Of a stretch of 45,192 nucleotides of DNA, positions 2,504 to 44,920 are shown in pieces. The stretch is taken from positions 1 through 45,192 of the IMG/VR virus record IMGVR_UViG_3300005613_000120; one strand, 5' to 3'. The notes under the pieces were generated by a model, which saw only the letters and a program-made list of their open reading frames with translations, searched no databases and was not told the origin of the DNA. Source of the stretch: a virus. Position numbers and translations under genes: made by a program. The stretch's first letter is position 1. Each line of letters starts with the position of its first letter.

Positions 2504-2505
2504 GC

Positions 2506-8617: not shown

Positions 8618-9715
8618 TCAGGCGGAAACCTTGTCGAGGCGGAACAGCTTCCGGCGGTTGTAGCACAGGAAGTTGTAGGTCATGTCCACCTGGACATGGT
8701 AGGTCGTATGCTGGTTGGCCGCCTTCTCGGGGCCTTCCTCGACCATGTATTCACCTTCGAGGAAACAGGGCTTGAAGACGCCCCAGTTGATCCCGTAGAT
8801 GGGATCGGCGGTCGTCGGGGCACTGGTTCCCGCCGGGCCGGTGTACGAGTCCAGGTACGGGACCCACATGACCGGCACACGCCGGAACAGCAGGCGACCG
8901 TCCTGGGACGCGATGTCGCTGCCCAGATTGTCGTTCTGGGCTTCCAGGACCTCTTCCAGCCGACCGATGACGTTGTAGTTCGTGTAGTACCCGAAGTCGG
9001 TCGCCGTGCCCAGGGCCGGGATCTCGGTCGGGGACATGAACCGGGTCTTCGTGGCGGCCTCACGCCACTTCCGAATCAGGTCGGTCTTGTCGATCGTGGT
9101 GTAGTCGGCACACCAGTTCGACCAGCGGTTGTAGGTGGCCGAGGACAGGCCGCCAGCACCAGCCGAGAAGCCGTACGGGTTGCCGCCGCCGGTCACGCTG
9201 GAACCGTCGTAGAAGCCCGGATCCTCGCCGTTGACCGCCGGGACGATCCAGTAGTCAACGCCGAAGGGGTCGAGCTTGTCCGACGAACTGGTCGGCTGGG
9301 ACCAGAAGTTGGCCTCCAGCTTCTCAGCCATGCTGATCATGGCGTCGGCACGACGAATCTTGAGCAGCTCGACGATTCGAGCGGGCTCGCGGTTCATCTT
9401 GATCTCACGACGCTCGAAGGCGTAGTGGGAGTTGGTGTGACGCCACGGAATTTCAGCCGTGGTCATCACGTCACCGACGTTCACGTTGTCGGTCGAGAAG
9501 AGACCGACGTTGCGGGCGGCGTTGGAATGATCGGTCATCACCGACCACTTGATGCCGTAGCCGGACTGGAACGTCACGCGGCTCTTGCGAAGCAGTTCGC
9601 GGGCAGCGACATGCTCCTGAAGGTCGGTGGCGATCTCAGTCCAGCGAAGCGGGTTGAGTTCCTGAAGAGTTTGGGAGACAAGATCCGCGATGTCTCCGCC
9701 TTGCAAAACGGACAT
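8618..9715 (-). CDS. Major capsid protein
   Basis: A 365-residue protein directly after the acidic scaffold gene and before the decoration-like gene, the canonical position of the capsid gene. Near the N-terminus is a helix resembling the HK97-fold N-arm (LVSQTLQELNPLRWTEI), then ARELLRKSRVTFQSGYG and WSVMTDHSNAARNVGLF. The C-terminal part is mixed (FRRVPVMWVPYLDSYTG, YGINWGVFKPCFLEGEYMVE). Length, order and HK97-like arrangement support the call; no single diagnostic motif exists. AAGGA lies eight bases before the ATG. Confidence 0.8.
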   Translation of the reverse strand: MSVLQGGDIADLVSQTLQELNPLRWTEIATDLQEHVAARELLRKSRVTFQSGYGIKWSVMTDHSNAARNVGLFSTDNVNVGDVMTTAEIPWRHTNSHYAFERREIKMNREPARIVELLKIRRADAMISMAEKLEANFWSQPTSSSDKLDPFGVDYWIVPAVNGEDPGFYDGSSVTGGGNPYGFSAGAGGLSSATYNRWSNWCADYTTIDKTDLIRKWREAATKTRFMSPTEIPALGTATDFGYYTNYNVIGRLEEVLEAQNDNLGSDIASQDGRLLFRRVPVMWVPYLDSYTGPAGTSAPTTADPIYGINWGVFKPCFLEGEYMVEEGPEKAANQHTTYHVQVDMTYNFLCYNRRKLFRLDKVSA

Positions 9716-22513: not shown

Positions 22514-22678
22514 ATGGAGTCCAGGCGAGCGAACATCGCGTGGACGATCGCAAGGCACTCGATCCTGTCAGGCATGAAGATCAACGTGATGTGCGACGAT
22601 CGCAGGGAGGCCGACATCCTCAACCAGATGATAGACGCGAACGTCCGAGAAATGAACAGCATGACTTGGAGCTTGTGA
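22514..22678 (+). CDS. Small unknown protein (54 aa)
   Basis: Begins MESRRANIAWTIARHSILSG and ends MNSMTWSL. One base separates it from the previous stop, and its TGA overlaps the next ATG. The in-frame start 63 bases upstream would overlap the neighbour. Helical, positively charged N-terminus. Coding status rests on the tight spacing. Confidence 0.45.
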   Translation: MESRRANIAWTIARHSILSGMKINVMCDDRREADILNQMIDANVREMNSMTWSL

Positions 22679-28850: not shown

Positions 28851-29269
28851 GCCCCACCCAGAGGACCCTCCGCGAGATGCGGAAGATGGGCCGGATCTGC
28901 GGGATCGTCGAGCGGTTCAACGGCTACGCCGGGCCGCACGGCGTCAGGCAGGACCTCTTTGGCTTCATCGACATCATCGCCCTGGACCCTCAGGACGGCA
29001 TCGTGGGCGTCCAGAGTACCGGGACCGACTACTCAGGCCACCTGAAGAAAATCACGCAGGAGAGGGCCGAGGAGGTCCGGGAATGGCTCTCCTGTGGCGG
29101 AGTTGTCGAACTCTGGGCCTGGCGGAAGGTCAAGCAGGTCAAGGGCGGGACCAAGATGGTCTACCGCCCCCGAGTCAAGAAGATCACTGCCGCCGACCTT
29201 GATACTGAACTGTCACCGGGGGACGACCCGGCAACTCCTGACGACGCTTCGCCGCCTCTTCCAGAGTGA
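28838..29269 (+). CDS. PD-(D/E)XK-like nuclease-fold protein (143 aa)
   Basis: Overlaps the previous gene by 13 bases. The core RQDLFGFIDIIALD and GIVGVQST, then HLKKITQERAEEV and VELWAWRKVK follow the phage VRR-NUC/PDDEXK pattern. The acidic residue D45 is present, but the usual (E/Q)xK reads QST (59-61), so the lysine is replaced by threonine. Possibly a structure-selective nuclease, or an inactive DNA-binding version. Its 3' end overlaps the oppositely oriented giant gene. Confidence 0.55.
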   Translation: MGKLSPTQRTLREMRKMGRICGIVERFNGYAGPHGVRQDLFGFIDIIALDPQDGIVGVQSTGTDYSGHLKKITQERAEEVREWLSCGGVVELWAWRKVKQVKGGTKMVYRPRVKKITAADLDTELSPGDDPATPDDASPPLPE

Positions 29270-32200
29270 TCGTCTGGATCCAGCCGTCCACCACGGTCCT
29301 CTGGACGTAGCGGAACCCGTTCTCCTTCCGGAGACGACGGACGATCTCGTTGAGCCCGTCGTGGTACTCCTTCACGTCAATGTTCCGGGCACGCAGGGAC
29401 TTGCTCACATCCTCGCTGGTGGCCCCGAGGCTCATCAGGGCAGCCAGAGACTTCTCGGCGTTCTTCCAGTCGTCCTGCTCGATCTCCTCGTACATGTTGG
29501 TGTAGTGGTAGTTCTTGGCCCTTGACATGGCCTGGTTGAACATCACCTCACGCTCTTCTCGCGTGAACCCGTTGACCCGAGCAGCCTCGTTGATCTCCTG
29601 CATGACCTTTCGGAGCTTGGCAAAGTCACGATCCGACTTCTCGTCGCTCCGGTCCTTGGCGTTGGCGTAGATGTTCAGCATCCGCTCCATCTCCCCGACG
29701 ATCCGACCTCTGGTCTCACCGGATCGCTTGGGCAGAGACAGCAGGAATTGACCCTGGAATTTCACGTTCTCCATGTCCGCGCCGCGGAACTCGTAGCTTC
29801 TTGCGCTGAACGGGATGGACTCGGCAAAGCCCGTTTTCGCCAACCTCATGAGGCTGTCCGTGATCAGCTTGTCGCCCTCCAGCTGCCCGAGTTCGGACTC
29901 TCGCTTGATCTCTTTGAGTTCTCCAATAAATGCCGCTCCGAAATGCCAGATCGGGGCAGACTTCGAGACCGCCTGATCCGCCGCACCACCGATGCCTCCA
30001 GTGAACCAGCGGGCCACCTCCTTGATTTGCTTGCCGGGATTGACGTAGGACCGATACCTCTGGACCTCTTGTCCACGGAGACGCTGAATCGTCCGGGAAA
30101 GCGGCGTGATGTCGAAGGTGATGAACCGATCGCCACGCTCGTTCATGTGCGGCAGGGGCTTCATGTCCTCGTCTTCGTCCAGTAGGCCAGCCTTCATCAT
30201 GGCGTAGATCATGGCCTGGAAAATGCTGGTCCAGACGTGGAGACCAGCGATCATGCCAGCCATGTAGACCGGGCCGCGACGGGCGTAGAACGTGTTCACG
30301 TCCGCGTCCTTGACCATCGGAATGCTCTTGACGCCAGGCGTCATCTGGGCAAGCTTCAGAGCCGGGTGCTTGACGGACCTGGTAGCGACCCGGAAGACGC
30401 TCATGGTCCAGTCGATTGACAGGAACGTGACCCGAGCCGCCTGTTCGTTCTGCTTCTGGGCGTCCTTCCAGTTCGCCCCGGTGAGGGTCCGCCGCACCTC
30501 GTCCAACACGACGCCTGCGGCTGGCAAAACGCCTCTCTGGCTCGCCTCCTGGAGTCTTGCACGACCTTCGTAGAAGTCGGGCATGACGATCCGCTCTTGT
30601 CCGCCGAACATGTCGTTGACGAAACTCATCAGGTCTTCAAGCTGGCCGTCGATGCTCTTCTGCCCAGGCTTCGGCTCCTTGAACACGAGGCTTTTCGTGC
30701 CTGTCGATGACTCGTCGATCGACTCGATCAAGTCCGTCATCATCAGGTTGGCCGCCGTGTAGAGCTTCAAGCCGTTGTGCCACCTGTCCCAAAGCTGGCG
30801 ATCAAGGGCTCCCTTGATTTCACGAATTCCCAGTGCAACATTGAGCTTGTTCGGAAGGCCAAGCTTCGTGAGAATGTTCGCAAGCTCTTCAAGGAAGATG
30901 TCTACTCCGCCGACCTGTCGGTCGAGTGCGGCAGCCCCGCCGACGCCGCTTGCCTCAAGACCGCGACCGACGAACAAGCCCACGTTGAACGGGCTGTCTT
31001 CGGAGTGGGCCAGGGCGATCCCGATGTGGTGAGCCGGAATGATCGGCATCCGGTAGCCGGTCCATCTGTTGACCACCCCGAACACACCTTGGTTCAGGAA
31101 GGTGTCTGTCGGGTCGATTCCGAACCGCCGAAGCTCCAACCTGGTTGCGATCACACCCTTCAGCGGGTTCCAGCTTGTCCCGAGGTTGCCCGACCAGGCG
31201 GACTCCGTCAGCGAGAATGCGTGGAATCCGCTGAAGAACAGGGCGGACTGCTTCAGGATCGCGTTGATCGCGGAAATCGCCTTGACGATCCGGTTGCCGC
31301 CGATCGGGTCTTCAAGCAGCGAGTTGATCGGGCGGACCACGGCAGGGTGGACGTAGACGGGACCGACGATCCCGATCGACTGGCCTGACTTGGTCTTCCG
31401 GAACGCGATACCTGAAAGCAGCGCGTTCTGGACCGGGACGTACCCAGGGATCCGCTGTTGGCTGATGTACGGCATCCCGTCAGAGGTCTTGCGGGTCATC
31501 AACTGGTTGATGTACCACCGACCGACCATCGCACGGTAGTTGGCCTGAGCGGAAAGCATGAGCAGTTCCGCCGCGTCCAGCGTCTTCGGGACCAAGCCTG
31601 CCTCAATGCCCTCCTTGTAGGTGGGGATATTCCGCTTCTTGGAGAACGGCGTGTTCGACTTCAGCGTCAACCACTGTCGGACCTCGCTGCGAGGCCGTTG
31701 CCAGATGTGGGCGACGTAGTTTGTCATGTATTTGATGTAGTCGTCGCCCATCCCCGACGCCTTCATCATCCGGTTCACCTCAGCCCGGACGTTCTCGAAT
31801 TCCTCCCGGACCAGACCGAGCGTCTGATGGAAGAACACGTCCCCGTCGTACAGGGCGAGCAGCTCCTCGTACGTCTCCCCGGTCCTGGGGTCGCCGGTCT
31901 CCTCGATGATGAACGTCATGTCCTCGCGGACACGCTTGGCGTCGGCCCCGTACCTGGCCTCGGTGCGGCGAATGATCCGGACGTAGATCGCTTCCAGATC
32001 GGCGATCTTGCGGTGGATCTTCCGGCTGGCGTCACGCGAAAGCATGTACGCAAGCTCGCGGGCCTGCGGGTCTCGCGGGACGACCACGCCCTTCGGAGCG
32101 GGCGTCGCCACCGGCTCGGGCCTTGCAACGGGGAAAGCCTCGACGGGCTCGATGTCCTTGGTCATGACGTGCGGTTGACCGTGGATCATTCGGAGGGCTT

Positions 32201-35200
32201 CGACCAGATCGGAATTGCTTCGGAGAAGTTCCTCCATGACTTCGGTCAGGCGAGGTGCGATCGACCTGGCCTGCTCCGGCATCATGAAGTACGCCGAGAA
32301 GAAGTCGGCCAGAAGTTCCTGGCTCTTCAGCCGGTACTTGATGTAGTCGCTGTTGGTGTCAGACCAGTCAACCGGGACGTTGCCGGGCTCCGGGCGGACC
32401 CATGATGAGAGACGCTTGGCCTCTTCTTGAAGCTCGGACGGCGAGTAGCCGGACTTTGCGAACAGCTTGGCGAACGGCAGATTGTCCTTGCCCTGGAAGA
32501 TGATCGCCGCGAAGCCGTGGCCGACTTCGTGAGAGATCGTGCGAACCCACCTGGGGTCGCCGATCTGGACCTCGAAGGTGTTCTTGTTCTGCTGCTCCCT
32601 GGCTTCGGCGATTGTCCGGACGTTTGCGTTCCTGGCCGCCTTGCTGATGATGTTCATCCATGGCTTGCCTGGCCTCTGGCCTCGGGAGAGGCCGATGCTG
32701 CCCAGCACGCCAACATCCTCGCCGCGAGTAGTCGTACTGACGATGAAGAACCCGAGGCGTCGAGCGGCTTCCCAGATGTCGATGCCCAAGCCGTCGCGGA
32801 CGTAGATCCACGGCGGCATGGTGTCATCGACGCTGGCTTCGTGCTTGGGCACGATCTTCTGGTATGGCTTCAGCGGATCCTGGAGCGGGGTCTTGGTCTG
32901 CCCCATCGACAACGACGCCTCGGACGTGACGCCGACGACATCCTGCTCGGTGGCTCCCTCGCCCTCAAGATTGATGTTCAGGTTGATGCCTTCAATCTCA
33001 GCCGCCTTCTGCTTCGAGTCGAAGGACGCCTTGAAGGTGATGCCGATGTCCTCGCCCATGTAGACGCCGATGAGCTTGATGAAGGCGTCCTTGTCACGCA
33101 CGACGAATTGAACGCTTCGCTGGCCCTTTCTCCACGAAAGCTGGATCCCGAGGTTGTCAAGAATCTCCTTGATTCTTGGATGGTTCAAGAGCAACTGCTT
33201 GCTCTTGATGGTCGGAAGGCTGACTTCGGCCAAGTTTCCGCTGTACCCGCGAATTACAACGCCTTCGCTGCTGTTGGCCGATCCTCTCTCGTCAAAGACG
33301 AGCTTTGCGACGTTTTCGGGAGTGCTGAGAGTGATGGACCTTTGCTGCGCGAATGTTGCAGGCTTCCAGTCGGCAGGCATCAGAATGCCTTCTCGCTCTG
33401 CGCCGGTGTTGTCAGTGAAGAAGATGATTTTTCCTCGACCTCTGTTCATGAGAACAGCATTGAGGACGTTGCCGGTGAACATGTACCGAACTTCACGGCT
33501 CTGCTTTGACTTCTCCTCGAAGATCTTGAAGAAATCTTCGATGGACCCTGCGACCATGCCGACAAGATACTTCGCTTGCTCGCCTGTCTTGTCTGTGTTC
33601 TTCGGGGCCGAGCCGGATTTGCCGATCATCGAGAACGGGATTGCCAGCGTTCTCGATGAATCAGGGACCGCCATTGTCACGGTGAACGCGCTGAGCGAAA
33701 GCGGGTTTTTCACGACCTTTGGCGAGTGCTTGACATCGAGAATGATTCCAGACTGAAGCTCCTGTCCAGTCTGCGCTTCCTTCAGAGTCCTGGCAGAACC
33801 GATCAAGACCTGATCTGCGATGTTTTGAATTTCGTTGATCTTGTCGTTCAGTTCGTTGTTGTAAAGGATGGAAATGCTGCGAAGCTCATTAGCCTTGTCC
33901 ACCGGCCAGTCCGAAATCGGAGGGGTCTTCTTCGGGTAAAACGTTTCGGAAGTAAACGAGGCCACGACGGTCTCTTTTTTTCCCTCCTTGTCGAAATATT
34001 TGACTTGGTACAGCGTGCCCTTTTCGTTTGTCACGATTTTTTGGACGACGCCTTCCTGCTCCTGGTTTCTGACCCAGACAACCGAATCGCCTTCCTTGAC
34101 CTCGACTTCGATACCGAGATCCCTCGCCATCTTTCTGGCTTTTTCTGTAATGATCCTGGTGTAGTAGGCGGAACCCAAATCCCTTGCTCGCTTGACAAGC
34201 TCGTCAACCGCCTTTTTCGCCTCGGTTCTGATGACCGATTGATCGAGTGTCGCGGCATCGCCTTCGATCTTCAGCCTTCCGGCGATTCTTTCGAGGATCT
34301 CAAGTTTGCTCAACGGCCTCTTCAGAGCCCTGATGGACACTTTTTCAAGAATCGTGCCTGCAAAGAACGGGCTTCTGCTGTTTTTCTTGATCGGAGGATT
34401 GACTTCCTGACTGGCGATGACTTCCGCCTGGAGGTCGAGGAATTCAGCCTCCAGCGGGTTCGTGCCGCTGGCCTTGAGGCCCGCAAGAATCCGGTTGTAG
34501 CTTTCGAGGATTCTTTCCCAAAGCTTTCTCTGTTCTTCAACCGGCAGAAGAACCATTCTTCCAGTGACCATCTTGACGATGTCTATGGCCGGTGTTTGGG
34601 GAGACAGTGGTCCGAGCCGCATGGCTCGGAGCGTTTCGATCTCGTCGAGGAACACCTCTCGGATCGCGGCACCGCCGACGATGTTCATGATGTCAGGGAG
34701 GTCCACCTTCAGGGAGCCTGTGGTGTCGGCGGACACGTTTGCGTTCAGGCTGCGGAGCTTCCGCATGATCGCCGCAGCCGGGCGAAGCTCCATTGGGAGG
34801 CTGGTCATGACAAACGAGTATCGCGGCAGGTTGACCTGGCCTGATCGGTTGACGCGACCGAGGACCTGCATGAATACGTTCACGTCGTCCTCAGGCTCAA
34901 GGACGAACATGTGACGAGGCTTCTGGCCTTCGGGGACGTTCTTTTCCGATGCGTGCAAAGAAACGCCGGTCGCCGACGAGCGGTTCAGCAGGACGAAGTC
35001 CAGCTTGCCGGAGTTGAACTTTCGGCGGATTTCCTCTTTCGAGTCCGCTTCCTTCCGCTCCGCCCATTTGGGGTCGTCATCGCTGTAGTCGATCTTCAAA
35101 CTACGACCCGTGAGTTCCGCTCCAGAGTACCCTGCGCCTTGAAGTTCGTTGAAGATGTAGTCGATCGGGCTGACTGGAAGATCAGCAAGCTTCGATTCGT

Positions 35201-38200
35201 CGATCGCAACTTCCGACACATGGAGTGCCGCCCTCAGTGCAAGCCCTTGGGCGTTGTTGAAGAACGAGTCCTGGTCGTCCGGGTCAATCTTGATCCTGAC
35301 GATTTCTCCGCTTGGAGCCTTGAACGACACGGTCAACAAGCGGTCAAGGGTTCGCTCGACCGCTGCCCTGAAATCGGCGTCGGCAACAGTGCCAAGGCCC
35401 TGCTCGCCCTTGATGTCCTGGAGAGCGGCTTCCATCGTCTTGGACACGGAGATGACCACGGCTTCGCCGCTCGCCATCGACTGCTTGATCTTGTCGATTG
35501 CCCCAACGACCTTCGACGCGAGAATGATCTGCGACGAAAGGTTGTGCATCACCGAGCCGAAATCGACTGACGAAAGACTTGGGTCTCCAACTCCTGGGTC
35601 GGAAACCGCTCCGTACCCCTTGGCGAACATCCATTGCTGGACCTCTGGCGTTGCAAGATATTCCGAAACGGCCCTGCTCAGGTCGTAGAACGTATTGAAG
35701 ATCCTTGAAGTGTCGTCGCCGTATGAAGCATCGACGCCGACGACGACCGGGTCGAAGTTGATGCCCGCGTACGAACGCTCACGGCGGATCAACTGATACG
35801 CCCGGATGAAGTAGGTCGAGATGATCTGCTTCAGCGGCAGTCCTCCGGACGCGATGGCCTCCTGCATGACAAGCGAAGTCGGGAACACCTCGCCGAGGTC
35901 GGTGTTGGAATACAGGGACAGGACCGCCTCGTTCTTGGCGAACGTCGCCGACGAGAACACAGCACCGGCAGACCGGCGGATGATCTTTCGGACCTGGTTC
36001 GCCAGCAGGAACGGGGCCTCTGGCGTCATTTCGTTGACTGACTGCGTGCCGCCAGCCGTGTGCGACTCGTCGAGGATGAAGATCGAGTCCGGGGCGTACT
36101 TCGACATCATGCCGTTCCGCCAGGAAAGAACCCCGGCTTCGCCCTTCTTCCGGTCGGGCTTTTTTCTTGGCGTGAGCTGCGAGTACGTCGTGGCGATCAC
36201 GTCGTAAACGACGTTGTCGCCAGCTTTCAGACCCTCTCCGTTCCTGAAGGATTTCAGCATGGTGCTGAAATGCGTTCTGGTCGTGTCGTTGTCGTTCGAC
36301 AAGATCTTGACGGAGTTCACCACCTTGCCGGTCTTGGCGTCCTTGAATTCTCCGTTCGTGCTTCGGTCAACGTTCGTCGGCGCGAACTTGATGTCGGTGT
36401 ATCCGAGGTCGGCGAACTCGCCAAGCATGTCCGTGTAGAGAGACGAATTCTCTGTCACGAAGACCGGGATTCTGCCGGAACGCATTGCGTAGATCAGCAG
36501 AGCGGCGACCTGACGGCCTTTTCCGATGCCGGTCATGTCGCCGATGATGAAGCCCTTGCCCTGCTCAAGCTGGTAGATCGCCAGTGCGATCGAGTCCAAT
36601 TGCTCGGCGTAGAAGATGCCGCTAATGATCTTCTCGAAGGTCATGCCGATCTTCTCGGCGACGTACTCCTCGACGGTCTTGCCGGTCTCTCGCTCGATGA
36701 GGGCGATGGCTTCCCTGACGGCTTCCGCCTGCCGCTCCGGGACCAGCGTCCCGGCAGCGGGCGTGTTCTTTGCACCCGGCTGGTATTCGACTTGGCGGTC
36801 ACCAGCACGGACTACAGGCTTCGGGGCAGGCTCTCCGGGCTTTCCAGCCCCTCCAGGGCCTCCATCCACTCCGCCAGGCTCGCCTTCAGGGCCAGGCTCG
36901 CTTCCCGGCTCGGGCTCACCTTCTTCGGGCTGTAGCCCAGGCTGATCCGGGGGCTCAACGCCTCCTCGGCTCTTTGTACCAGCATCGCCGCCAGTTCCGC
37001 CGGGCTCTCCGCCATCATTCCCGACATCCTTTGGCTTGCCGGGAACGTTGACGCCTGCACCAGCCCCAGGACCCGCTCCCTGAGTGCTTCCACCCACTGG
37101 CCCCGGTCCAGTTCCAACTGGCCCTTTCGGAGGCTGATCGCCCCGACCAGGCCTGCCCGATTGTCCCTCGCCTCCGGCGCGTAGCCTCTCAAGAGCCACC
37201 TCCTCAAGCTGCTGCCAGGTCTCGATGACCGGCGGATTTTCAGCAGCCAGGAACGGGACCTTTTCCTGGCCCTCCTGCTGCTGCTGGAAGTAGAACAGGT
37301 CCACCGGCCACGCTGAACCCTGGCGAGCGTAGAGCTTGCCGCTCAGCGTCAACCTGACTGGAACGTCGTAGTGATCCCGGACATATGACCAGAACTTCCG
37401 CCACTTGTCGCTGTTGTACCGGACGCCCTTGTTCACCTCGGTCAGGTTGCCGGAACCGATGATGGCGACCGCTCCGGGGACTTCACCAGTGGCGATGCCC
37501 TTGAGGAACTTCACCACGATGGCATGGTCGATCTGGTCGGTGATGAAGGTCTGGCCGCCCTCTACGGGAATCTGCCAGACCTTCTTCTGGCTCGGGTTCT
37601 TCGGGTCGGTCTTGGTCCCGAACGGCGGGTTCATCAACCGGAACAGGAAGCCACCGTCAACCGTGGGGCTCAAAGCGTCCTGGTTCGACGACGAATGACC
37701 GAGACTCGGCGACGGCGAACGCATCCCGAGTTCGAGCAGGCCGTCGTACCTGTTCTTGTCGATCTCGTTGCCCTGCCGGAGGCTGCCGTTCCTGCCGATC
37801 AGGAGCGCACCGTGCCCGGCGGTCGGGTCGAACAGCGGCGTGAACCTGGTCACGCCGCCAAGGACCTGAGCAGCGAACGCCATTGGGATCGGCGTCGAAA
37901 ACTGCTGAAGCTCCTTCGACTCCGCCGTGTAGTCGTGCATCAAGGGCATCGACTGGTAGATTTCAACGAGCTTGTTGTAGACCTCGGAGAAGACGGCAGG
38001 ATCCGTGTAGGCCTTCTCACCGGCCTTCAGGATGATCTCGTCGGCGACCGCGACGGTCGCCTGCTCGTAGACCTCGGCCACGCGGCGGCGGATGTTGTCC
38101 GGCAGCTTCTCATTGGTGTCCTCGCCGAAGAACAGGCGAGCGACGTAATCCATCAGATCCTTGCGGGTCCGGAACCTCGCGCCGCTCTTGAGGTAGTCGA

Positions 38201-41200
38201 TCAGGATCAGCCGAAGCTCGCTCCATTGCGGGTCGTCGATTGATCCGATCAGCGGGGCCTGCTCCTGCCCCTTCGTGATGCCCAGCATGGCCTGACGCAC
38301 GTTCGGCGTGCCGGTCAGGGTCATCCTGGAATCGCCTGGCGCATTGGCCGCAATCTGGACCAACTGGGGCCACGCGGTCTCCAGCGGCTTGGCGATCTTG
38401 CCAATGACGCGGATGGCCTTTTCAGGGTCGCCGGTCATGGCGACCAGATTGCTGTAGACCGCCCCAACGATATCAGTGAAATCAGTTCGGCCTTCGTCGA
38501 AGACGGCGGCTTCAATCAGTTCGCCGACCTTTTCTTGAAGTGCTTCGGACGGCTGTTCAGCCCGGCTGGCCGCACGGAGGTTCTTCGCGTCCTGGAGGGA
38601 CTCGACGCTTCCGGCCTCGGCTCGCAGCGATGCCCTGGCTTCCACCACTCGACGCTGGTCGTCACTCAGTTCCTCGATGGTGACCGCTTCGCGGTTCTGG
38701 TTGACGACGGTCTTGAGCTTCTTCTTCCTGGCCTTCTCGGCGACCTTGTCTTCTTCGCCGAGGATCTCAAGGATGTCGCTGAGAGCCTTGCCCATGCGAG
38801 TGGACTTCGTCTGTCCCTGTGGCTGCTGGCGAGGAGACGGCGGAGCTTGAGGCGGAACTTCGGCCTTTGGTTTCGGCTCGGCCTTCGGCTTTGGCTCGGT
38901 TTCGGTCGGAGCAGGGGATTCCTCCTGGCTTCCGAATCGCTCGGCGAGCTTCTTTGAGAACCCGGCGGCAATCGGGTTGATCGGTGGTTCCGGCGGCTCA
39001 GCACCCGCAGCTTCAGCGGGCCTTGCCTTTCGCGGCTCGGCCTCCGGCTTCGCCTCAGCCGGGGGCTCAGGAACCCGCTCGGCACCCGGAGGCGGGCCGC
39101 CGGGGATCGTCGGGCCGGTCTCGCCTGGGGCAAAGGCACCGCCCGGCGTCGGAGCCTCGCCTGGGGCAAAGGCACCGCCCGGCGTCGGAGCCTCGCCGGG
39201 AGCAGGCTCGCCTTCAGGGGCGGGAGCAGGCTCGCCTTCAGGGGCGGGAGCAGGCTCCAAAGGGACGGGAGCAGGCTCGCCTTCAGGGGCGGGAGCAGGC
39301 TCGCCTTCAGGGGCGGGAGCAGGCTCGCCCTCTGGAGCAGCCGGAGTCGGCTGGGGCGGCTCTTGGATCTCGACGGTCGGGCCTTGGCCCTCAGGAGCCG
39401 CAGGGCCGCCCTCAGGACCGCCCTCGGGTGCGGCGGGGCCACCGGCCTCCGGGCCGCCTTCCTCGCCGCCCTCGTATGGGTACGGGAAGGGATCCGGCGT
39501 CTCCATCGGCTCGGGCTGCGGAGTGCCCGGCGGCGGCGGGGTCTCGCCCCGGTCTTCGGCCTCGGATTCCTCGACCTTCGTTTTCGGGGCAGCCGTCTGC
39601 ACGAACCCACGACCAGGGACGAACTCGAAGCCGTCGTTCCAGAGCCGACGCCAAAGGATCTGAACCTCGCTGACGAAGTTCTGCCGGGCGTTCTTCTTTC
39701 TCAAGAGAGACTGAATGTTCGGCGGGAAGTTCCTGATCTGGGATCGCGTCAGGTCCTTGACCTTCGGATCCGTGATCTCAGACATGACCTGAGCGAAATC
39801 CGGGTCGTTCTTGGCGATATCCCAGGCTTGGATGGCCGCCTCGCCGATCTCGTCGAGCGTCTTGCCGCCACGGCGGACGTAGTTGGCGACCTCTGACGTG
39901 GTGCTGAGGACGGCGGAACCGCCGACCGCGCCAAGACCGGCCTGCACGAAAGCCTCGGGAGTCAGCATCGAATCCAGTTCGACGCCGAGTTCGTTGGCGA
40001 CCATCGTCCGGAAAGCCGCTTCGCTGAGAAGCTGGGCCTCCTCCTCAAGGACCTCGCCAATCATGTTGCGGAAGACGCGACCGACTGGCGAACGGCTCCC
40101 ATAGATCTGGCGAGGCAGAACACCACGCTCGATCAGTGATGAAGTCACGCCGTACGCGACCGCACCAAGACTCGCCGTCATTTCCGCGTCTTCGCGGGAC
40201 ACGCCAGCCTTGATCAGGGAATCGACCATGGCTTCGTACGAGCTACCAGCCTCCATCGCAAACAGCGAGTAAGCTGCGACCCGGACGCCGAAGTCCCTGG
40301 CCTCCTTCTGGATCACCAGGCTGGCCGCCTGAGCCTCGGCAGCATTCAAGCCACGACGCGCGGCGGCCCGGCTGGCGGCGGCAGCACCGCGACCAATGAA
40401 GACGTTGTAGACCGCGTTGGCAGCATCTTCCGGGAACTGCCCGGTCCAGTAGTCGATGTTGCCGGAAGCGTCGTCGCTGACGAACGGAGTCTTCGGCTCG
40501 AAGTCTTCCGGAGGAGCAAGGATGCTCGTCTCTTTCAGACTCTTGATCGGCTCGGAAACATACTTGTCGATGAGTTCCTTGGCCGACTGGAGATACTCTT
40601 GCCGCAAATCGACGACCGGCTGAGTCATTGCGATTTGGAGCTTGCGGCGACCCTCCGGGATCTTGAAGCCCTTCCGAGCTTCCCGGAAGTCTCTGAAGCC
40701 TCCGCCGTACGGCATCCCGGTTCTCGGATTGATCCGTGGCCTGGGCTTTTTACCGCCAGTCAAGGATATACCGTAGTACTGCTCGAAATCCTCCGCGTAC
40801 TCGGCGAACGCCTCGCCAATCGCCCCGCCGATGCCGCTGGCAGCCATATCGACTTCGGCCATCAGGTCGTTGTAGTACTCTGGGAATTCCCTGGCAATCT
40901 GCGGGATCGACTTCAGGACATCTCCGTTGTTCGACTTGACGATCGCTGCCGAACGCATCGCGTAGTAGGTCGAGGCCCTGAAATTGTCCACTGAAAGCTG
41001 TTGGAGCGAGAGTGCCGCCTGAGGCGTCTCGCCAAGCGTCAGTTGTGCCAGAGTCACACCAGCCCGGCCAACGCCCTTGGCAACATTTCCGGCAATCGTC
41101 CTGTCCTCGCGGGCTTCGGCAAGACGCTCCTGCTCAGAAATGATCTCCTGCCGGTTGACGATGTTGTCGTCAAGCTGGACGCCGGGCAGCGAATCGAAGA

Positions 41201-41330
41201 GCCGGTTGCCGCTGCGTCCCGGAACCGGAATCCTTGAGCCGCCGTCCATGGGAACGTCGGTCTGTCCGACGCTGTCGCCAGGCAGGCTGTCGAAGAACGA
41301 GGACCGATTCGTCGGCTGATTGGGTTCCAT
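29184..41330 (-). CDS. Giant polyvalent/DarB-like protein (methyltransferase, helicase, zincin motif), 4,048 aa
   Basis: Start ATG 41330 is preceded by GGAAGG. In order: helical N-terminus with two FDSLPG motifs; acidic Pro/Glu/Ala repeats at ~590-760; N6-adenine methyltransferase fold with DPTAGHG (~1167) and NPPF (~1232); Gly/Pro linker at ~1383-1523; SF2/strawberry-notch-like helicase with GIGKGRQ (~1598), DESH (~1752) and GRVNRSG (~2160); zinc-protease motif HEVGH (~2935); and a C-terminal region with hydrophobic helices resembling polyvalent-protein LPD domains. By analogy with phage P1 DarB and other polyvalent proteins it is probably packaged, injected with DNA and protects it against host restriction. 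The length is exceptional. Confidence 0.85.
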   Translation of the reverse strand: MEPNQPTNRSSFFDSLPGDSVGQTDVPMDGGSRIPVPGRSGNRLFDSLPGVQLDDNIVNRQEIISEQERLAEAREDRTIAGNVAKGVGRAGVTLAQLTLGETPQAALSLQQLSVDNFRASTYYAMRSAAIVKSNNGDVLKSIPQIAREFPEYYNDLMAEVDMAASGIGGAIGEAFAEYAEDFEQYYGISLTGGKKPRPRINPRTGMPYGGGFRDFREARKGFKIPEGRRKLQIAMTQPVVDLRQEYLQSAKELIDKYVSEPIKSLKETSILAPPEDFEPKTPFVSDDASGNIDYWTGQFPEDAANAVYNVFIGRGAAAASRAAARRGLNAAEAQAASLVIQKEARDFGVRVAAYSLFAMEAGSSYEAMVDSLIKAGVSREDAEMTASLGAVAYGVTSSLIERGVLPRQIYGSRSPVGRVFRNMIGEVLEEEAQLLSEAAFRTMVANELGVELDSMLTPEAFVQAGLGAVGGSAVLSTTSEVANYVRRGGKTLDEIGEAAIQAWDIAKNDPDFAQVMSEITDPKVKDLTRSQIRNFPPNIQSLLRKKNARQNFVSEVQILWRRLWNDGFEFVPGRGFVQTAAPKTKVEESEAEDRGETPPPPGTPQPEPMETPDPFPYPYEGGEEGGPEAGGPAAPEGGPEGGPAAPEGQGPTVEIQEPPQPTPAAPEGEPAPAPEGEPAPAPEGEPAPVPLEPAPAPEGEPAPAPEGEPAPGEAPTPGGAFAPGEAPTPGGAFAPGETGPTIPGGPPPGAERVPEPPAEAKPEAEPRKARPAEAAGAEPPEPPINPIAAGFSKKLAERFGSQEESPAPTETEPKPKAEPKPKAEVPPQAPPSPRQQPQGQTKSTRMGKALSDILEILGEEDKVAEKARKKKLKTVVNQNREAVTIEELSDDQRRVVEARASLRAEAGSVESLQDAKNLRAASRAEQPSEALQEKVGELIEAAVFDEGRTDFTDIVGAVYSNLVAMTGDPEKAIRVIGKIAKPLETAWPQLVQIAANAPGDSRMTLTGTPNVRQAMLGITKGQEQAPLIGSIDDPQWSELRLILIDYLKSGARFRTRKDLMDYVARLFFGEDTNEKLPDNIRRRVAEVYEQATVAVADEIILKAGEKAYTDPAVFSEVYNKLVEIYQSMPLMHDYTAESKELQQFSTPIPMAFAAQVLGGVTRFTPLFDPTAGHGALLIGRNGSLRQGNEIDKNRYDGLLELGMRSPSPSLGHSSSNQDALSPTVDGGFLFRLMNPPFGTKTDPKNPSQKKVWQIPVEGGQTFITDQIDHAIVVKFLKGIATGEVPGAVAIIGSGNLTEVNKGVRYNSDKWRKFWSYVRDHYDVPVRLTLSGKLYARQGSAWPVDLFYFQQQQEGQEKVPFLAAENPPVIETWQQLEEVALERLRAGGEGQSGRPGRGDQPPKGPVGTGPGPVGGSTQGAGPGAGAGVNVPGKPKDVGNDGGEPGGTGGDAGTKSRGGVEPPDQPGLQPEEGEPEPGSEPGPEGEPGGVDGGPGGAGKPGEPAPKPVVRAGDRQVEYQPGAKNTPAAGTLVPERQAEAVREAIALIERETGKTVEEYVAEKIGMTFEKIISGIFYAEQLDSIALAIYQLEQGKGFIIGDMTGIGKGRQVAALLIYAMRSGRIPVFVTENSSLYTDMLGEFADLGYTDIKFAPTNVDRSTNGEFKDAKTGKVVNSVKILSNDNDTTRTHFSTMLKSFRNGEGLKAGDNVVYDVIATTYSQLTPRKKPDRKKGEAGVLSWRNGMMSKYAPDSIFILDESHTAGGTQSVNEMTPEAPFLLANQVRKIIRRSAGAVFSSATFAKNEAVLSLYSNTDLGEVFPTSLVMQEAIASGGLPLKQIISTYFIRAYQLIRRERSYAGINFDPVVVGVDASYGDDTSRIFNTFYDLSRAVSEYLATPEVQQWMFAKGYGAVSDPGVGDPSLSSVDFGSVMHNLSSQIILASKVVGAIDKIKQSMASGEAVVISVSKTMEAALQDIKGEQGLGTVADADFRAAVERTLDRLLTVSFKAPSGEIVRIKIDPDDQDSFFNNAQGLALRAALHVSEVAIDESKLADLPVSPIDYIFNELQGAGYSGAELTGRSLKIDYSDDDPKWAERKEADSKEEIRRKFNSGKLDFVLLNRSSATGVSLHASEKNVPEGQKPRHMFVLEPEDDVNVFMQVLGRVNRSGQVNLPRYSFVMTSLPMELRPAAAIMRKLRSLNANVSADTTGSLKVDLPDIMNIVGGAAIREVFLDEIETLRAMRLGPLSPQTPAIDIVKMVTGRMVLLPVEEQRKLWERILESYNRILAGLKASGTNPLEAEFLDLQAEVIASQEVNPPIKKNSRSPFFAGTILEKVSIRALKRPLSKLEILERIAGRLKIEGDAATLDQSVIRTEAKKAVDELVKRARDLGSAYYTRIITEKARKMARDLGIEVEVKEGDSVVWVRNQEQEGVVQKIVTNEKGTLYQVKYFDKEGKKETVVASFTSETFYPKKTPPISDWPVDKANELRSISILYNNELNDKINEIQNIADQVLIGSARTLKEAQTGQELQSGIILDVKHSPKVVKNPLSLSAFTVTMAVPDSSRTLAIPFSMIGKSGSAPKNTDKTGEQAKYLVGMVAGSIEDFFKIFEEKSKQSREVRYMFTGNVLNAVLMNRGRGKIIFFTDNTGAEREGILMPADWKPATFAQQRSITLSTPENVAKLVFDERGSANSSEGVVIRGYSGNLAEVSLPTIKSKQLLLNHPRIKEILDNLGIQLSWRKGQRSVQFVVRDKDAFIKLIGVYMGEDIGITFKASFDSKQKAAEIEGINLNINLEGEGATEQDVVGVTSEASLSMGQTKTPLQDPLKPYQKIVPKHEASVDDTMPPWIYVRDGLGIDIWEAARRLGFFIVSTTTRGEDVGVLGSIGLSRGQRPGKPWMNIISKAARNANVRTIAEAREQQNKNTFEVQIGDPRWVRTISHEVGHGFAAIIFQGKDNLPFAKLFAKSGYSPSELQEEAKRLSSWVRPEPGNVPVDWSDTNSDYIKYRLKSQELLADFFSAYFMMPEQARSIAPRLTEVMEELLRSNSDLVEALRMIHGQPHVMTKDIEPVEAFPVARPEPVATPAPKGVVVPRDPQARELAYMLSRDASRKIHRKIADLEAIYVRIIRRTEARYGADAKRVREDMTFIIEETGDPRTGETYEELLALYDGDVFFHQTLGLVREEFENVRAEVNRMMKASGMGDDYIKYMTNYVAHIWQRPRSEVRQWLTLKSNTPFSKKRNIPTYKEGIEAGLVPKTLDAAELLMLSAQANYRAMVGRWYINQLMTRKTSDGMPYISQQRIPGYVPVQNALLSGIAFRKTKSGQSIGIVGPVYVHPAVVRPINSLLEDPIGGNRIVKAISAINAILKQSALFFSGFHAFSLTESAWSGNLGTSWNPLKGVIATRLELRRFGIDPTDTFLNQGVFGVVNRWTGYRMPIIPAHHIGIALAHSEDSPFNVGLFVGRGLEASGVGGAAALDRQVGGVDIFLEELANILTKLGLPNKLNVALGIREIKGALDRQLWDRWHNGLKLYTAANLMMTDLIESIDESSTGTKSLVFKEPKPGQKSIDGQLEDLMSFVNDMFGGQERIVMPDFYEGRARLQEASQRGVLPAAGVVLDEVRRTLTGANWKDAQKQNEQAARVTFLSIDWTMSVFRVATRSVKHPALKLAQMTPGVKSIPMVKDADVNTFYARRGPVYMAGMIAGLHVWTSIFQAMIYAMMKAGLLDEDEDMKPLPHMNERGDRFITFDITPLSRTIQRLRGQEVQRYRSYVNPGKQIKEVARWFTGGIGGAADQAVSKSAPIWHFGAAFIGELKEIKRESELGQLEGDKLITDSLMRLAKTGFAESIPFSARSYEFRGADMENVKFQGQFLLSLPKRSGETRGRIVGEMERMLNIYANAKDRSDEKSDRDFAKLRKVMQEINEAARVNGFTREEREVMFNQAMSRAKNYHYTNMYEEIEQDDWKNAEKSLAALMSLGATSEDVSKSLRARNIDVKEYHDGLNEIVRRLRKENGFRYVQRTVVDGWIQTITLEEAAKRRQELPGRPPVTVQYQGRRQ
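39121..39330. repeat. In-frame tandem repeats in the polyvalent gene
   Basis: Two perfect 36-bp units (39121-39156, 39157-39192; protein GEAPTPGGAFAP) and 24-bp units encoding PAPEGE repeats next to them. They form a flexible linker before the methyltransferase and should vary in copy number. Confidence 0.8.
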
Positions 41331-41331
41331 G

Positions 41332-43671
41332 TCACCTTCCCGCAGCGCGGTCAACTGGCTTCTTTTCGATCAGGTTGGAACGCCCAGGCGGCAGGACGAG
41401 GGCGACTTCGCCGCTCTGTACGGCAGCCATGTAGACATTCTGGTTGTTCTTGAACGTCGAGACCTGAACGCGCTTCGTCCTGCCGGTGGCCTTGTCGATG
41501 ATGTAGACGCTACCAGCATGGGCTCCGCTGGTGTCCAGCATACCAGTCGTGTCGTAGAAGACACCTTGCGGGAGGTCAGGGGAAAACTCGGTTCCAGGCA
41601 AGATCGACCTGGGGTCCTGGAACAGGCCGCCGCCGGTGCTGCCACGCCTCACGCTTTCAGACGCAGCCTTTCTGGCCGCTGATTCGGCGGCTTTCTTGCT
41701 TCTGGCGAATCCATAGGCTTTCAAATAGTCGTCTTCGTTCGGGACAATTTTTGATTCGTCGATTTCCGAACCTGGGCCAAACTTGCCGCCGGAATCGAAC
41801 CCGGTCTCCCTTTCAATGGCAAATTTCATCGCAAGTTCATGGACCTGGTCGTCCGGTATTCCGGGGAACTGGCCGATATCAACGATCTCGGTGTCGCCAT
41901 TGGCCTTTTGCATCGTCCAGACGCCAGCACCAGTGTCCCACTTCAGTTGGCCGGTCTGCTCGCCCTCTTCGCCGATCAAGACCCCGGACCTTTCAGCGTA
42001 CCCCTGGACGATCCGGACCTCGTTGCCCTGAAGCTCGCGTTCCCGGCGTCTGAGTTGGCGAAGCTCCTGTCCGTCAAACCGGCCACTCCCGATGGCCTCG
42101 CGGGTTCTCATCAACTCGTCGGAATTCCGCTTGAGCCGAACCGCCGAGTCGTGATAGACGCTGCCCGGGTTCCGCTCGTACTGAGCAAGCGAATCCCTGG
42201 CCTGGGCGTACATGCCAGGCTCCTGCTCCATCATCTGGATCATTCCGGCCATCCGCTGATCCACGACGTAATCACCGCGAGGGCCGATGGTAGCCGGAAG
42301 AAGACCACTTGAGGTCATCATCACGGCGTTTCCGCTCGGGTCCCTGATCACGTCGCCCTGACGGATTCCAGCAGATCTGGCGTCGTCGTCCGTGTAGCCG
42401 CTCACGCTGCCGCCGATGTTTTTGATCGTCGCTGCACGCTCCCTGACAGGCGTGTCAGCCGCCATGCGGCCCTCGGTCTCCCACGCAGGGTTCGCGGCAG
42501 CAGGCCCACGCTGGCCCGCACGACGCTCTAGCTCCCGTTGGTTTCTGATCTTCGCCGAGCGGGAGACAGTCTCGCCAGCAGCCTCCGCTCGGGCAATCGA
42601 GTCGGCGTATTCCGGGTCACCAGGGCGAATGCGGGACCCGTCCTTGCGGAAGAAGAATTGCGACCGACTCCCGTCACCTGCGACGTTCGGAAGGAAGCCG
42701 GTCTGGCCGTACGGAAGCTTTTTGCCAGAACGGATGGCCTCAAGATTCTGCTTCTGCCATTGGTCACGAATGTAGCGACGAATGACAGGATGCTGCTTGT
42801 CCAGATTCCGAGGAACTCGTCCGGTCTCATTGAACTCCCTGAACGCGGCATACCCGCCAGTGTTGATGATCGAGTCAACGTCAGCGTCAGTCATCTGACC
42901 GCCGCCGGAATACCCCTGCATCAGTGCAATCAGGTTCTCGGAGACCGTGTCCGGGCTGTCGCCGAGAAGCTTTTCAACCCCCTTCGGATCTTTGTCCAGG
43001 AAGCGTTCAAGATCTTTCTGAACCTTGAATCTGGCTTCTCGCTGAGCAGTCTCTCCGAGGAACCGCCCAAGATCAGCCATCGCTTTGTTCGGCTGAATAA
43101 CGCCCCCGTCCTGGCGAATCAATTCTTCTTCGCGGCGAATTGACTGAGGCGTTGTCCTGATCCGCTCTTCAAGCTCGTCACGGCGTTGCTTCGCTCTGGC
43201 CTGCTCATACCGAACCGGGGCCATCGCCCGCTGGAATTCCTGTTCGCGGGCGTTTGCTTCGGCAATATTCGCACCAAACCGGGCCATCGCTTCGTTCGGC
43301 TCGATGACTCCGCCGGTTCGAGCCAGCATGTCTCGTTCAGCCTGGAGCCAAGACGGAGTCCTAGGCTCATCAAGTTCTCTTCGACGGAAGAGATCTTCCT
43401 CGCGGAGCATCCGGTTGGGCCGAGCATAAGACATGAGGTCGCGGTTCATCTCAAGAGCAGCAGCCGCTCTAAGATCGGACTCTCCAGGAGCCTCAAAAGT
43501 GGCTCCAAGAGAAGAATCGCGATTGGACCTGACAAAGGCAGTGGCAGCCGTGGCAGGGGCGTTCCTGTTCTGCCCCTTGATGCTCATCATGATGCCGGGC
43601 TCTTTCCAGCTCGTATCGCCGGGCTGAGCAACAGCAAACGGGTCAACCACCTTGGGCTGCTTCTTCGCCAT
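41332..43671 (-). CDS. Internal virion/ejection protein (779 aa)
   Basis: Charged, largely helical, with N-terminal low-complexity and an approximate duplication: GGVIEPNEAMA (120-130) and GGVIQPNKAMA (189-199), each preceded by Arg/Glu-rich helix and followed by E..REQ/REARF. Later part contains Gly-rich loops and a compact C-terminus (FYDTTGMLDTSGAHAGSVYI). It lies between the tail protein and the giant ejected protein, with which it overlaps by few bases, so an internal core or ejection role is likely. No enzyme motif seen. Confidence 0.6.
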   Translation of the reverse strand: MAKKQPKVVDPFAVAQPGDTSWKEPGIMMSIKGQNRNAPATAATAFVRSNRDSSLGATFEAPGESDLRAAAALEMNRDLMSYARPNRMLREEDLFRRRELDEPRTPSWLQAERDMLARTGGVIEPNEAMARFGANIAEANAREQEFQRAMAPVRYEQARAKQRRDELEERIRTTPQSIRREEELIRQDGGVIQPNKAMADLGRFLGETAQREARFKVQKDLERFLDKDPKGVEKLLGDSPDTVSENLIALMQGYSGGGQMTDADVDSIINTGGYAAFREFNETGRVPRNLDKQHPVIRRYIRDQWQKQNLEAIRSGKKLPYGQTGFLPNVAGDGSRSQFFFRKDGSRIRPGDPEYADSIARAEAAGETVSRSAKIRNQRELERRAGQRGPAAANPAWETEGRMAADTPVRERAATIKNIGGSVSGYTDDDARSAGIRQGDVIRDPSGNAVMMTSSGLLPATIGPRGDYVVDQRMAGMIQMMEQEPGMYAQARDSLAQYERNPGSVYHDSAVRLKRNSDELMRTREAIGSGRFDGQELRQLRRRERELQGNEVRIVQGYAERSGVLIGEEGEQTGQLKWDTGAGVWTMQKANGDTEIVDIGQFPGIPDDQVHELAMKFAIERETGFDSGGKFGPGSEIDESKIVPNEDDYLKAYGFARSKKAAESAARKAASESVRRGSTGGGLFQDPRSILPGTEFSPDLPQGVFYDTTGMLDTSGAHAGSVYIIDKATGRTKRVQVSTFKNNQNVYMAAVQSGEVALVLPPGRSNLIEKKPVDRAAGR

Positions 43672-43675
43672 CAGG

Positions 43676-44920
43676 TCACCTCGTCACGCCGAGAGCGGAC
43701 GAAGTGTCGAACTTCACGTCGCCGCCATACTGCTTCAGGTCGTTGGTGTAAGTCACAATTCCGGAGCCTGAACGCTCCGTGAAGACCCCGCCAAACACCT
43801 CTGCATCAACGATGGTCACAGATTTCACGTTCGATGAATCGACCGAGAAAGAGCCGCCGTACAGCTTTAGGCCGAAAGCGTCCCCATCCGAGTTGTCGCC
43901 GAGCGTGCCGCTGCCTCGCCAGTTGATCGTGCCGCCAGATTGGATCACGTTCCTGGCCGGGCTGGTTTTGAACATGTTCACGACGCCGCCGGTCACGGTC
44001 ATGCTGCCAGGTTCCGTCACCTCGCCGATGGCAACCGTGGTCGCCTCGATCGGGGACGAGCAGTTGAACGTGCCAGCCGTGACCACCACCTCGTTCAGGT
44101 TCGTGGCGTTGATTCCGAGGGTGACCGTCGCGCTCGGGCAGTTGATCATGAAGATCTTTTGGATGCTGATCGCATTCTCAAGCGTGATCGTCCCCAGGAC
44201 GTTAGTCCCGATCACCCGAAGAGACTGGATCGTGGACCCGAACCCGATCGAAACGAGATCCTGGGACCGGATCCCGCCGATCACGTCGATCTCGTCGATG
44301 GTTCCCTCAATCATGGTGGCCGCACCACGACCGTTTATGACCGCCTTGCCGTCCGTGTTCGACACGTCGATCTGGAGGTGGAAGCCCTTGGACGGCTGAC
44401 CGATCGTGCCGGTGTAGGTGCTGGCGACCCTCAAGGTGTTCAGGTCAACCGCCGACTGATCGAGCCCGTAGTAGACATCATGAGGAGAGTCGGCAAAGAC
44501 GACGTCGTCGCCGCTGACAGGCTTGGCGTTCGTGTCCCAGTTCTTCGTAGTGTTCCAGTCGTTCGGCCCAGCCGAAGCGGTCGAGTCCGCGACCGTGGTC
44601 GTGGCAGATCCCGTGACGGTCACGGCAAGGTAGAACGGCGCACCGGCAACCTTCGCCGTTGCCGTGACCACGTTCGACGCCACGGTCCAGGTGATGGCCT
44701 GAAAAAGGGCGTTGGAGCTTCCTGCCGCCGCCGCCTGAATAGCAGCGGCGTGGACGGTCTCGTCAACGCCGGAAGCCGTGTGCTGGACCGTGGCCGTGCC
44801 ACCGTTCTCGTCAGTCAGCGTGATCGTGTAGATGTCGCCGTTGACAGAGTCGTTGTTCAACGTGATCAGGGTCACCTGTGCAGCGGCAGCAGCACCGCCA
44901 AACCATAGAACGGTAGCCAT
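43676..44920 (-). CDS. Beta-helix-like tail protein (414 aa)
   Basis: N-terminal beta region (MATVLWFGGAAAAAQVTLIT), WNTTKNWDTNAKP, then many short repeating strands (GTITLENAISIQKIFMINC, SATVTLGINATNLNEVVVTA, SMTVTGGVVNMFK). Such repeats are typical of right-handed beta-helix tail spikes or pectin-lyase-like fibres. No catalytic motif identified. The neighbouring LamG fragment supports a receptor-binding complex. Confidence 0.6.
   Translation of the reverse strand: MATVLWFGGAAAAAQVTLITLNNDSVNGDIYTITLTDENGGTATVQHTASGVDETVHAAAIQAAAAGSSNALFQAITWTVASNVVTATAKVAGAPFYLAVTVTGSATTTVADSTASAGPNDWNTTKNWDTNAKPVSGDDVVFADSPHDVYYGLDQSAVDLNTLRVASTYTGTIGQPSKGFHLQIDVSNTDGKAVINGRGAATMIEGTIDEIDVIGGIRSQDLVSIGFGSTIQSLRVIGTNVLGTITLENAISIQKIFMINCPSATVTLGINATNLNEVVVTAGTFNCSSPIEATTVAIGEVTEPGSMTVTGGVVNMFKTSPARNVIQSGGTINWRGSGTLGDNSDGDAFGLKLYGGSFSVDSSNVKSVTIVDAEVFGGVFTERSGSGIVTYTNDLKQYGGDVKFDTSSALGVTR

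What the first reader, a model, noticed from the sequence alone, without database searches (positions are those of the whole stretch)
29184..41330. 4,048-residue polyvalent protein combining methyltransferase and helicase
One reading frame carries methyltransferase DPTAGHG/NPPF, strawberry-notch-like helicase GIGKGRQ/DESH/GRVNRSG and an HEVGH motif, linked by low-complexity spacers. It is far longer than DarB of P1 and uses about a quarter of the window. It is placed directly after internal virion genes, as expected of an injected anti-defence protein.
Basis: partly seen in the sequence, partly recalled or inferred. Interest (0 to 1): 0.7.

Follow-up and report, generated by a model that had tools for sequence, protein, structure and literature searches.

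The report
Giant injected anti-restriction phage protein
This phage spends over a quarter of its genome on one giant protein that joins a DNA-marking enzyme to a DNA motor, a known type of weapon that phages are thought to carry into the cell to protect their DNA; this is a very distant new member of that type.

Summary
One uninterrupted minus-strand gene, 41330 to 29184 (ATG, 4,048 aa, 443 kDa, 26.9% of the record), carries an N6-adenine-type methyltransferase and a strawberry-notch-type helicase with conserved catalytic motifs, one HExxH motif where most relatives have one, and two low-complexity spacers. The frame is open in 36 of 36 viral relatives checked. Of 80 viral loci (best of 329 hits), 63 hold complete frames with a median of 3,960 aa, so the size is normal for the family.

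It is a polyvalent protein (Iyer et al. 2017). Podoviruses JC1 (4,515 aa, 22.1% of genome, found in purified virions) and Parlo (3,764 aa) carry published DarB-like giants. This one is not a P1 DarB orthologue: pairwise E is 0.43, P1's helicase matches another family, and Parlo's domain order is reversed.

Best explanation: packaged, injected, methylates entering phage DNA against restriction. The enzyme modules are shown; packaging, injection, cleavage and anti-restriction are inferred. 'After internal virion genes' is partly supported: it ends the late gene run, but its two upstream genes match no family. For the N- and C-terminal regions, about 40% of the protein, no relative was found. New member of a known kind.

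The parts
29184..41330 (-). whole gene, ATG start, 4,048 aa (4,056 from an upstream TTG at 41354)
41335..41340 (-). Shine-Dalgarno-like GGAAGG, 4 bases before the ATG; the stop of the preceding gene (41334-41332) lies between them
   Evidence: read by eye
39555..41330 (-). N-terminal region (P0001 residues 9-600); all-helical in a low-confidence model; no relative found
   Evidence: (mean pLDDT 54.9)
38775..39554 (-). low-complexity spacer rich in P, E, G, A with tandem repeats (about residues 601-860)
37911..38207 (-). helical stretch just before the methyltransferase (about residues 1050-1148), shared with relatives; position equivalent to LPD36 of Iyer et al., identity with LPD36 not shown
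   Evidence: hhalign probability 90.6, E 1.3e-6; four shuffles 0.038 to 0.85
37215..37907 (-). N6-adenine-type DNA methyltransferase (residues 1150-1380): STP, DPTAGHG, NPPF
   Evidence: (found in 87 of 87 related loci searched)
36765..37214 (-). second low-complexity spacer (residues 1381-1530)
35736..36617 (-). first helicase lobe, AAA_34 (residues 1580-1873): GIGKGRQ, DESH
34410..35168 (-). second helicase lobe, Helicase_C_4, strawberry notch C-terminal family (residues 2063-2315): GRVNRSG
32991..33854 (-). post-helicase domain (about residues 2501-2788) shared with relatives, no family name
   Evidence: 79 of 87 loci; E 2.6e-25
32280..32552 (-). putative zincin-like metallopeptidase region with HEVGH (32531-32517)
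   Evidence: (E 1.3e-3 but probability only 18%); not confirmed by HMM or fold search
29187..32177 (-). C-terminal region (about residues 3060-4056), mostly helical in a low-confidence model, no relative found; LPD38 tested and not found
41332..43671 (-). 779-aa gene directly upstream, no family; homologue (34%) in the same order in a related viral record
43676..44920 (-). 414-aa gene upstream of that, no family; homologue (60%) in the same order in a related viral record
12860..14650 (-). terminase large subunit, same strand as the giant gene
   Evidence: phrog_5989, 1.5e-13
8618..9715 (-). major head protein
   Evidence: phrog_9953, 3.1e-7
257..943 (-). virion structural protein
   Evidence: phrog_10356, 4.6e-30

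Best explanation
A polyvalent protein of the methyltransferase-helicase class. Most likely it is made late, packed into the head and released into the cell with the DNA. There the strawberry-notch-type helicase tracks along the entering duplex and the adenine methyltransferase marks it before host restriction enzymes cut. The HEVGH region may cleave the protein to free the modules; the spacers would give flexible joints and let a very large chain pass the portal. Shown here: the continuous gene, the methyltransferase and helicase families with conserved catalytic residues, the same domain order in many phage relatives, the place at the end of the late gene run. Inferred from the class: packaging, injection, methylation of entering DNA, protection from restriction. 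Speculative: self-cleavage and the role of the spacers.
For: Gene and start. Helicase; methyltransferase. Invariant residues in all 7 aligned sequences include the S-T of the STP motif, NPPF, GxGKGR, DExH and the motif VI arginines. 329 viral hits with an aligned relative, best 80 fetched; 63 complete frames, median 3,960 aa, 60 of 63 at least 3,000 aa; frame open in 36 of 36 records checked. Terminase on the same strand as the giant gene in 7 of 8 records with a terminase match, 5 of 5 over the cut-off; the other 28 of 36 gave no match. In 5 of 9 relatives scanned the gene directly upstream matches phrog_4287, DNA ejection protein. 6 of 23 post-helicase regions scanned match phrog_10089, DarB-like antirestriction; the window's does not. 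JC1 gp69: 51 unique peptides in purified virions (PMC9144972, passages). P1 DarB: head protein, first 30 residues send a reporter to the capsid (PMC9024508, passages). HExxH at 350-800 aa after the helicase in 58 of 73 viral relatives against 0.7 expected.
Against: No direct evidence of packaging or injection. The upstream 779-aa protein does not resemble the ejection-type proteins of relatives (no hit). No significant BLASTP similarity to P1 DarB (E 0.43). No LPD38, ParB, pyrophosphatase, transglycosylase or other named polyvalent domain besides the helicase in the window protein. The peptidase is weak: the relatives' HMM gives -2.4 bits at HEVGH, a downstream E-x-x-A pattern is not enriched in relatives (10 of 60 against 15 in shuffles), fold searches gave nothing at E 0.001 or better and no Z of 8 or more. 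Similar modules without giant flanks occur on plasmids and chromosomes, so the module by itself does not prove injection.
Confidence: 0.65

Rival explanations
1. The protein acts inside the infected cell after late expression, methylating progeny DNA or excluding rival phages, and is not injected.
For: The core is common on plasmids (579 records) and in bacterial genome contigs (289 hits), where no virion is involved; packaging was not tested here; the upstream gene lacks similarity to ejection proteins.
Against: Position at the end of the late gene run in the window and next to ejection-type genes in 5 of 9 relatives scanned; JC1's giant is in the virion (PMC9144972, passages).
Confidence: 0.2
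2. It is mainly part of the DNA ejection machine: the helical N- and C-terminal regions span the envelope and the helicase pulls DNA in, with methylation secondary.
For: Both ends are mostly helical in low-confidence models; neighbours in relatives match DNA ejection proteins.
Against: Methyltransferase motifs conserved; the same core on plasmids that have no phage ejection machine; models too poor to use as evidence of fold.
Confidence: 0.1
3. The motifs are chance or decayed remnants in a non-functional giant frame.
For: The protein is the longest end branch in the tree of 51 (2.1 changes per column).
Against: No stop in 12 kb, codon signature throughout, catalytic motifs intact, frames open in 36 of 36 relatives checked.
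Confidence: 0.02

Closest known systems
Polyvalent proteins with the methylase-helicase dyad (Iyer et al. 2017, PMC5512222; abstract and sections 6, 8, 14, 29, 32 read)
   Same: Very large multidomain phage protein, adenine methyltransferase followed by a SWI2/SNF2-like ATPase, possible zincin, near late genes
   Different: Strawberry-notch-type ATPase, which the authors report in a few instances only; none of their other named domains detected in this protein
DarB-like giant of Bcep22-like podovirus JC1, gp69, 4,515 aa (PMC9144972, passages)
   Same: Size, share of genome (22.1% against 26.9%), last gene of the virion module, directly downstream of a 500-800-aa gene
   Different: Sequence of gp69 itself not compared here; its helicase is labelled HepA superfamily there
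Serratia phage Parlo DarB-like protein, 3,764 aa (PMC6606913, main text read; sequence in L096)
   Same: Giant late-gene protein with helicase and methyltransferase
   Different: Order helicase then methyltransferase; transglycosylase and LPD39 present; BLASTP E only 0.012
Escherichia phage P1 DarB, 2,255 aa
   Same: Methyltransferase followed by SF2 helicase in one protein
   Different: SNF2-rel_dom and N6_Mtase families, no significant BLASTP match
Bacteroides phage BS-TP4 gp3, 5,391 aa, annotated hypothetical
   Same: Methyltransferase, strawberry-notch helicase and an HE-x-x-x-H motif in the same order; core 28.9% identical
   Different: Also carries ddrB-ParB, InPase and LPD38

Membership tests
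Polyvalent proteins (Iyer et al. 2017) | two or more domains of disparate activity in one polypeptide | tested here: met
   methyltransferase and helicase families in one frame
Polyvalent proteins (Iyer et al. 2017) | encoded near phage late or virion genes | tested here: met
   end of the minus-strand run that holds terminase and head genes, joined across the record's ends as in one related record
Polyvalent proteins (Iyer et al. 2017) | delivered into the host with the DNA | not testable with these tools
   needs virion proteomics or ejection assays
Methylase-helicase dyad of polyvalent proteins | EcoKI/TaqI-like adenine methyltransferase with N-terminal TP motif and NPP(Y/F) | tested here: met
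   STP and NPPF conserved in all 7 aligned sequences; profile finds EcoR124II M protein, 1.6e-6
Methylase-helicase dyad of polyvalent proteins | SWI2/SNF2-like or strawberry-notch ATPase C-terminal to the methyltransferase | tested here: met
   AAA_34 and Helicase_C_4 over cut-off
Methylase-helicase dyad of polyvalent proteins | LPD36 before the methyltransferase, with GxGU motif | tested here: inconclusive
   a helical stretch shared with relatives is there, not identified as LPD36; no GxGU seen by eye
P1 DarB orthologue | sequence similarity to P1 DarB over methyltransferase and helicase | tested here: not met
   best BLASTP E 0.43; different helicase family
Zincin-like metallopeptidase of polyvalent proteins | HExxH helix plus downstream glutamate in a zincin fold | tested here: inconclusive
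   HEVGH at the relatives' position; hhalign E 1.3e-3 at probability 18%; HMM and the glutamate test gave no support; fold search ambiguous
LPD38 C-terminal domain | match to LPD38 | tested here: not met
   no Pfam hit; home-made HMM from 29 matches gives -0.7 bits, below shuffles

The most novel reading that the evidence does not exclude
The helicase is the engine of entry: anchored by helical N- and C-terminal regions of a kind not yet described, it draws the phage DNA through the envelope and methylates each site as it passes, so that entry and immunity to restriction are one process, after which the peptidase frees the motor.
Probability: 0.07. Interest if true: 0.8.

Novelty: new member of a known kind. 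Interest (0 to 1): 0.3.

Why it matters
Giant polyvalent proteins are a large and mostly unassigned part of phage coding capacity. The search here found 329 viral hits of this one type, typically with frames near 4,000 aa, while a full-text search for strawberry notch, phage and virion together returned one paper. Defining the core (methyltransferase, strawberry-notch helicase, post-helicase domain) and its variable flanks gives a handle for annotating these proteins and for testing how phages protect entering DNA. The window's copy adds a very divergent lineage whose ends have no assignment.

Tried and rejected
Rejected: plus-strand reading. P1 DarB orthology. LPD38 at the C-terminus: the pattern seen by eye in the alignment with BS-TP4 was not borne out by an HMM or hhalign. 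Ejection-protein identity of the 779-aa upstream gene: below shuffled controls, no phage record by tblastn. Downstream glutamate of the zincin: pattern not enriched.

Led nowhere: close relatives of the giant in viral contigs by single-sequence patterns, core, C-terminal part, and of the 414-aa gene; nucleotide match in phages; tblastn of the N-terminal region in phages and plasmids and of the C-terminal part in phages; in plasmids six weak matches that end about residue 2,710. AlphaFold models: N-terminal mean pLDDT 54.9, residues 2860-4056 mean 50.4 with the HEVGH stretch at about 66-88 in most blocks. Foldseek: nothing at E 0.001 or better. VIA-align: best Z 7.0; rows 8, 22 and 48 place the HEVGH stretch on the N-terminal, zincin-like domain of listed toxin components at Z 6.0, 5.3 and 4.8 (that this domain is zincin-like is recalled); Z of that size can be a common arrangement, so not used as evidence. 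A MAFFT run over all N-terminal parts hit the time limit and was replaced by a quicker one. The careful tree search was not finished; the quick tree is quoted. PADLOC and NCBIfam list nothing for the giant protein. Controls shuffle the part after residue 3150, not the HEVGH stretch itself.
Full report
OBSERVATION. The gene is real and on the minus strand: ATG 41330 to TGA ending at 29184, 4,048 aa, 443 kDa, 26.9% of the record. GGAAGG stands 4 bases before the ATG, and the preceding gene's stop ends one base before it. The chance of no stop over 4,048 codons is about 5e-58, and G+C is highest at the third codon position in 19 of 21 blocks; the two exceptions fall in the spacers. Motif places use P0001, numbered from the TTG at 41354, 8 higher than from the ATG.

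DOMAINS. Pfam lists two families over cut-off, AAA_34 (1580-1873) and Helicase_C_4 (2063-2315), the strawberry notch pair. The methyltransferase was shown through relatives: seven sequences aligned (window, two phages, four plasmids) share the S-T of STP, the PxxGxG glycines, NPPF and the helicase motifs, and their profile finds the EcoR124II M protein at 1.6e-6. In single-segment BLASTP against 87 related loci, methyltransferase and helicase were found in 87 of 87 and residues 2330-2700 in 79 of 87; eight other segments (two N-terminal, the stretch before the methyltransferase, the one after residue 2690, the HEVGH stretch and three C-terminal) in 0. Profile comparison added the helical stretch before the methyltransferase (probability 90.6, E 1.3e-6; four shuffles 0.038 to 0.85) and the post-helicase domain to about residue 2788 (E 2.6e-25). 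The N-terminal region matched nothing (tblastn), nor did the part after residue 3150.

HEVGH. It is the only HExxH. An HExxH lies 350-800 aa after the helicase in 58 of 73 viral relatives with enough sequence, against 0.7 expected (most 4 in 200 shuffles). For the window the chance of one in that interval is 0.25%. Against: the relatives' HMM scores -2.4 bits there and a higher-scoring match of that HMM falls elsewhere, hhalign gives E 1.3e-3 but probability 18%, a downstream E-x-x-A pattern is not enriched, and structure comparison is ambiguous. A zincin is likely, not shown.

RELATIVES. tblastn of the core found 3 phage records (Bacteroides phage BS-TP4, and Acinetobacter phage MD-2021a twice) and 579 plasmid records, 57 with 80% or more of the query at one place. 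A pattern scan of IMG/VR gave 424 stretches, 329 encoding a relative, best 80 kept. Of their 80 frames 63 are complete, median 3,960 aa, range 2,301-5,632, 60 at least 3,000 (stop to stop). In genome contigs 289 relatives, best 80 kept; 66 complete frames, median 2,153 aa, 23 at least 3,000. In 36 records, chosen from the 80, the frame is open in 36. A quick tree of 51 rows interleaves viral, plasmid and chromosomal copies; the window is the longest end branch (2.1) and joins L034 with support 90, below the 95 mark, so its place is unsure.

FLANKS VARY. Around the same core, relatives carry other polyvalent domains. In the post-helicase parts of 23 sequences, window included: LPD38 in 9, LPD39 in 3, others in 1 or 2. 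In the N-terminal parts of 20: InPase 7, ddrB-ParB 3, LPD1 3, others fewer. The window has none of these.

CONTEXT. Minus-strand late genes include terminase (12860-14650), a major head protein (8618-9715) and a virion structural protein (257-943). TerL, the next gene and the head protein have close viral relatives. In one such record (TerL 71%) homologues of the window's 414-aa gene (60%) and 779-aa gene (34%) follow the late genes directly, so the window's two ends are probably adjacent in the genome and the giant gene closes one long late run; this rests on one relative, in which the window's 257-943 and 943-1386 genes were not detected. The 779-aa and 414-aa genes have no family match. In 72 of 72 viral relatives with 1.5 kb upstream a same-strand frame of at least 60 aa ends near the giant's start, and in at least 40 it is 508 aa or longer (list cut at 40). 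Of nine such proteins scanned, five match phrog_4287, DNA ejection protein. The window's 779-aa protein does not, and scores below shuffles against them. Terminase shares the giant's strand in 7 of 8 records with a terminase match, in 5 of 5 over the cut-off; 28 of 36 had no match.

KNOWN OR NEW. Iyer et al. 2017 (PMC5512222; abstract and sections 6, 8, 14, 29, 32) describe the class, the methylase-helicase dyad, rare strawberry-notch versions, zincins and placement near late genes; they propose injection and DNA protection. JC1 gp69 (PMC9144972, passages) is 4,515 aa, 22.1% of its genome, last in the virion module, found in purified virions. CSP3 (PMC10269572, passages), Parlo (PMC6606913, main text) and Atu_ph08 gp21 of 4,877 aa (PMC6630229, passages) are further giants. 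P1 DarB's first 30 residues direct a reporter into the capsid (PMC9024508, passages). Gill et al. 2011 on Bcep22 is not held and is known only through these papers. P1 DarB has SNF2-rel_dom and no significant similarity to the window core (E 0.43); Parlo has helicase before methyltransferase, with transglycosylase and LPD39. So the window works like the DarB-like giants as a class but is no P1 DarB orthologue. A search for strawberry notch, phage and virion together returned only the Iyer paper, in the open-licence library only.

VERDICT. A real, intact, very divergent member of a known kind. Enzyme modules shown; packaging, injection and anti-restriction inferred by analogy; cleavage speculative. 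Interest 0.3.

Noticed in passing
window 23232-24665 +: 477-aa helicase matching only the C-terminal part of phrog_62 (2.5e-102) and of DpdE/ZorD-type defence helicases; in the plus-strand gene cluster.
   Followed up: no
window 22540-23235 +: Matches phrog_3704, labelled ferredoxin (3.7e-21), directly before the helicase gene; the label may not be the function.
   Followed up: no
window 24662-27511 +: 949-aa primase-like protein with weak matches to RepB_primase, PriCT_1 and DUF5906.
   Followed up: no
window 1 and 45192: The record is classed linear, but one related record has genes of both ends in direct succession, so the ends are probably adjacent and the genome may be nearly complete.
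   Followed up: partly
window 43676-44920 -: 414-aa protein that by eye looks repetitive and beta-rich, like a fibre or spike; no family match.
   Followed up: no
L008 1845-19456: Thalassospira plasmid gene of 18.5 kb annotated strawberry notch C-terminal domain-containing, larger than the window's gene.
   Followed up: no
L002 1511-17686: Bacteroides phage BS-TP4 gp3, 5,391 aa, annotated hypothetical, carries ddrB-ParB, InPase, methyltransferase-helicase and LPD38.
   Followed up: partly
L153, L171 and similar genome contigs: The same core occurs in frames of only about 1,300-1,600 aa in bacterial contigs, so it may also serve cells by itself.
   Followed up: no
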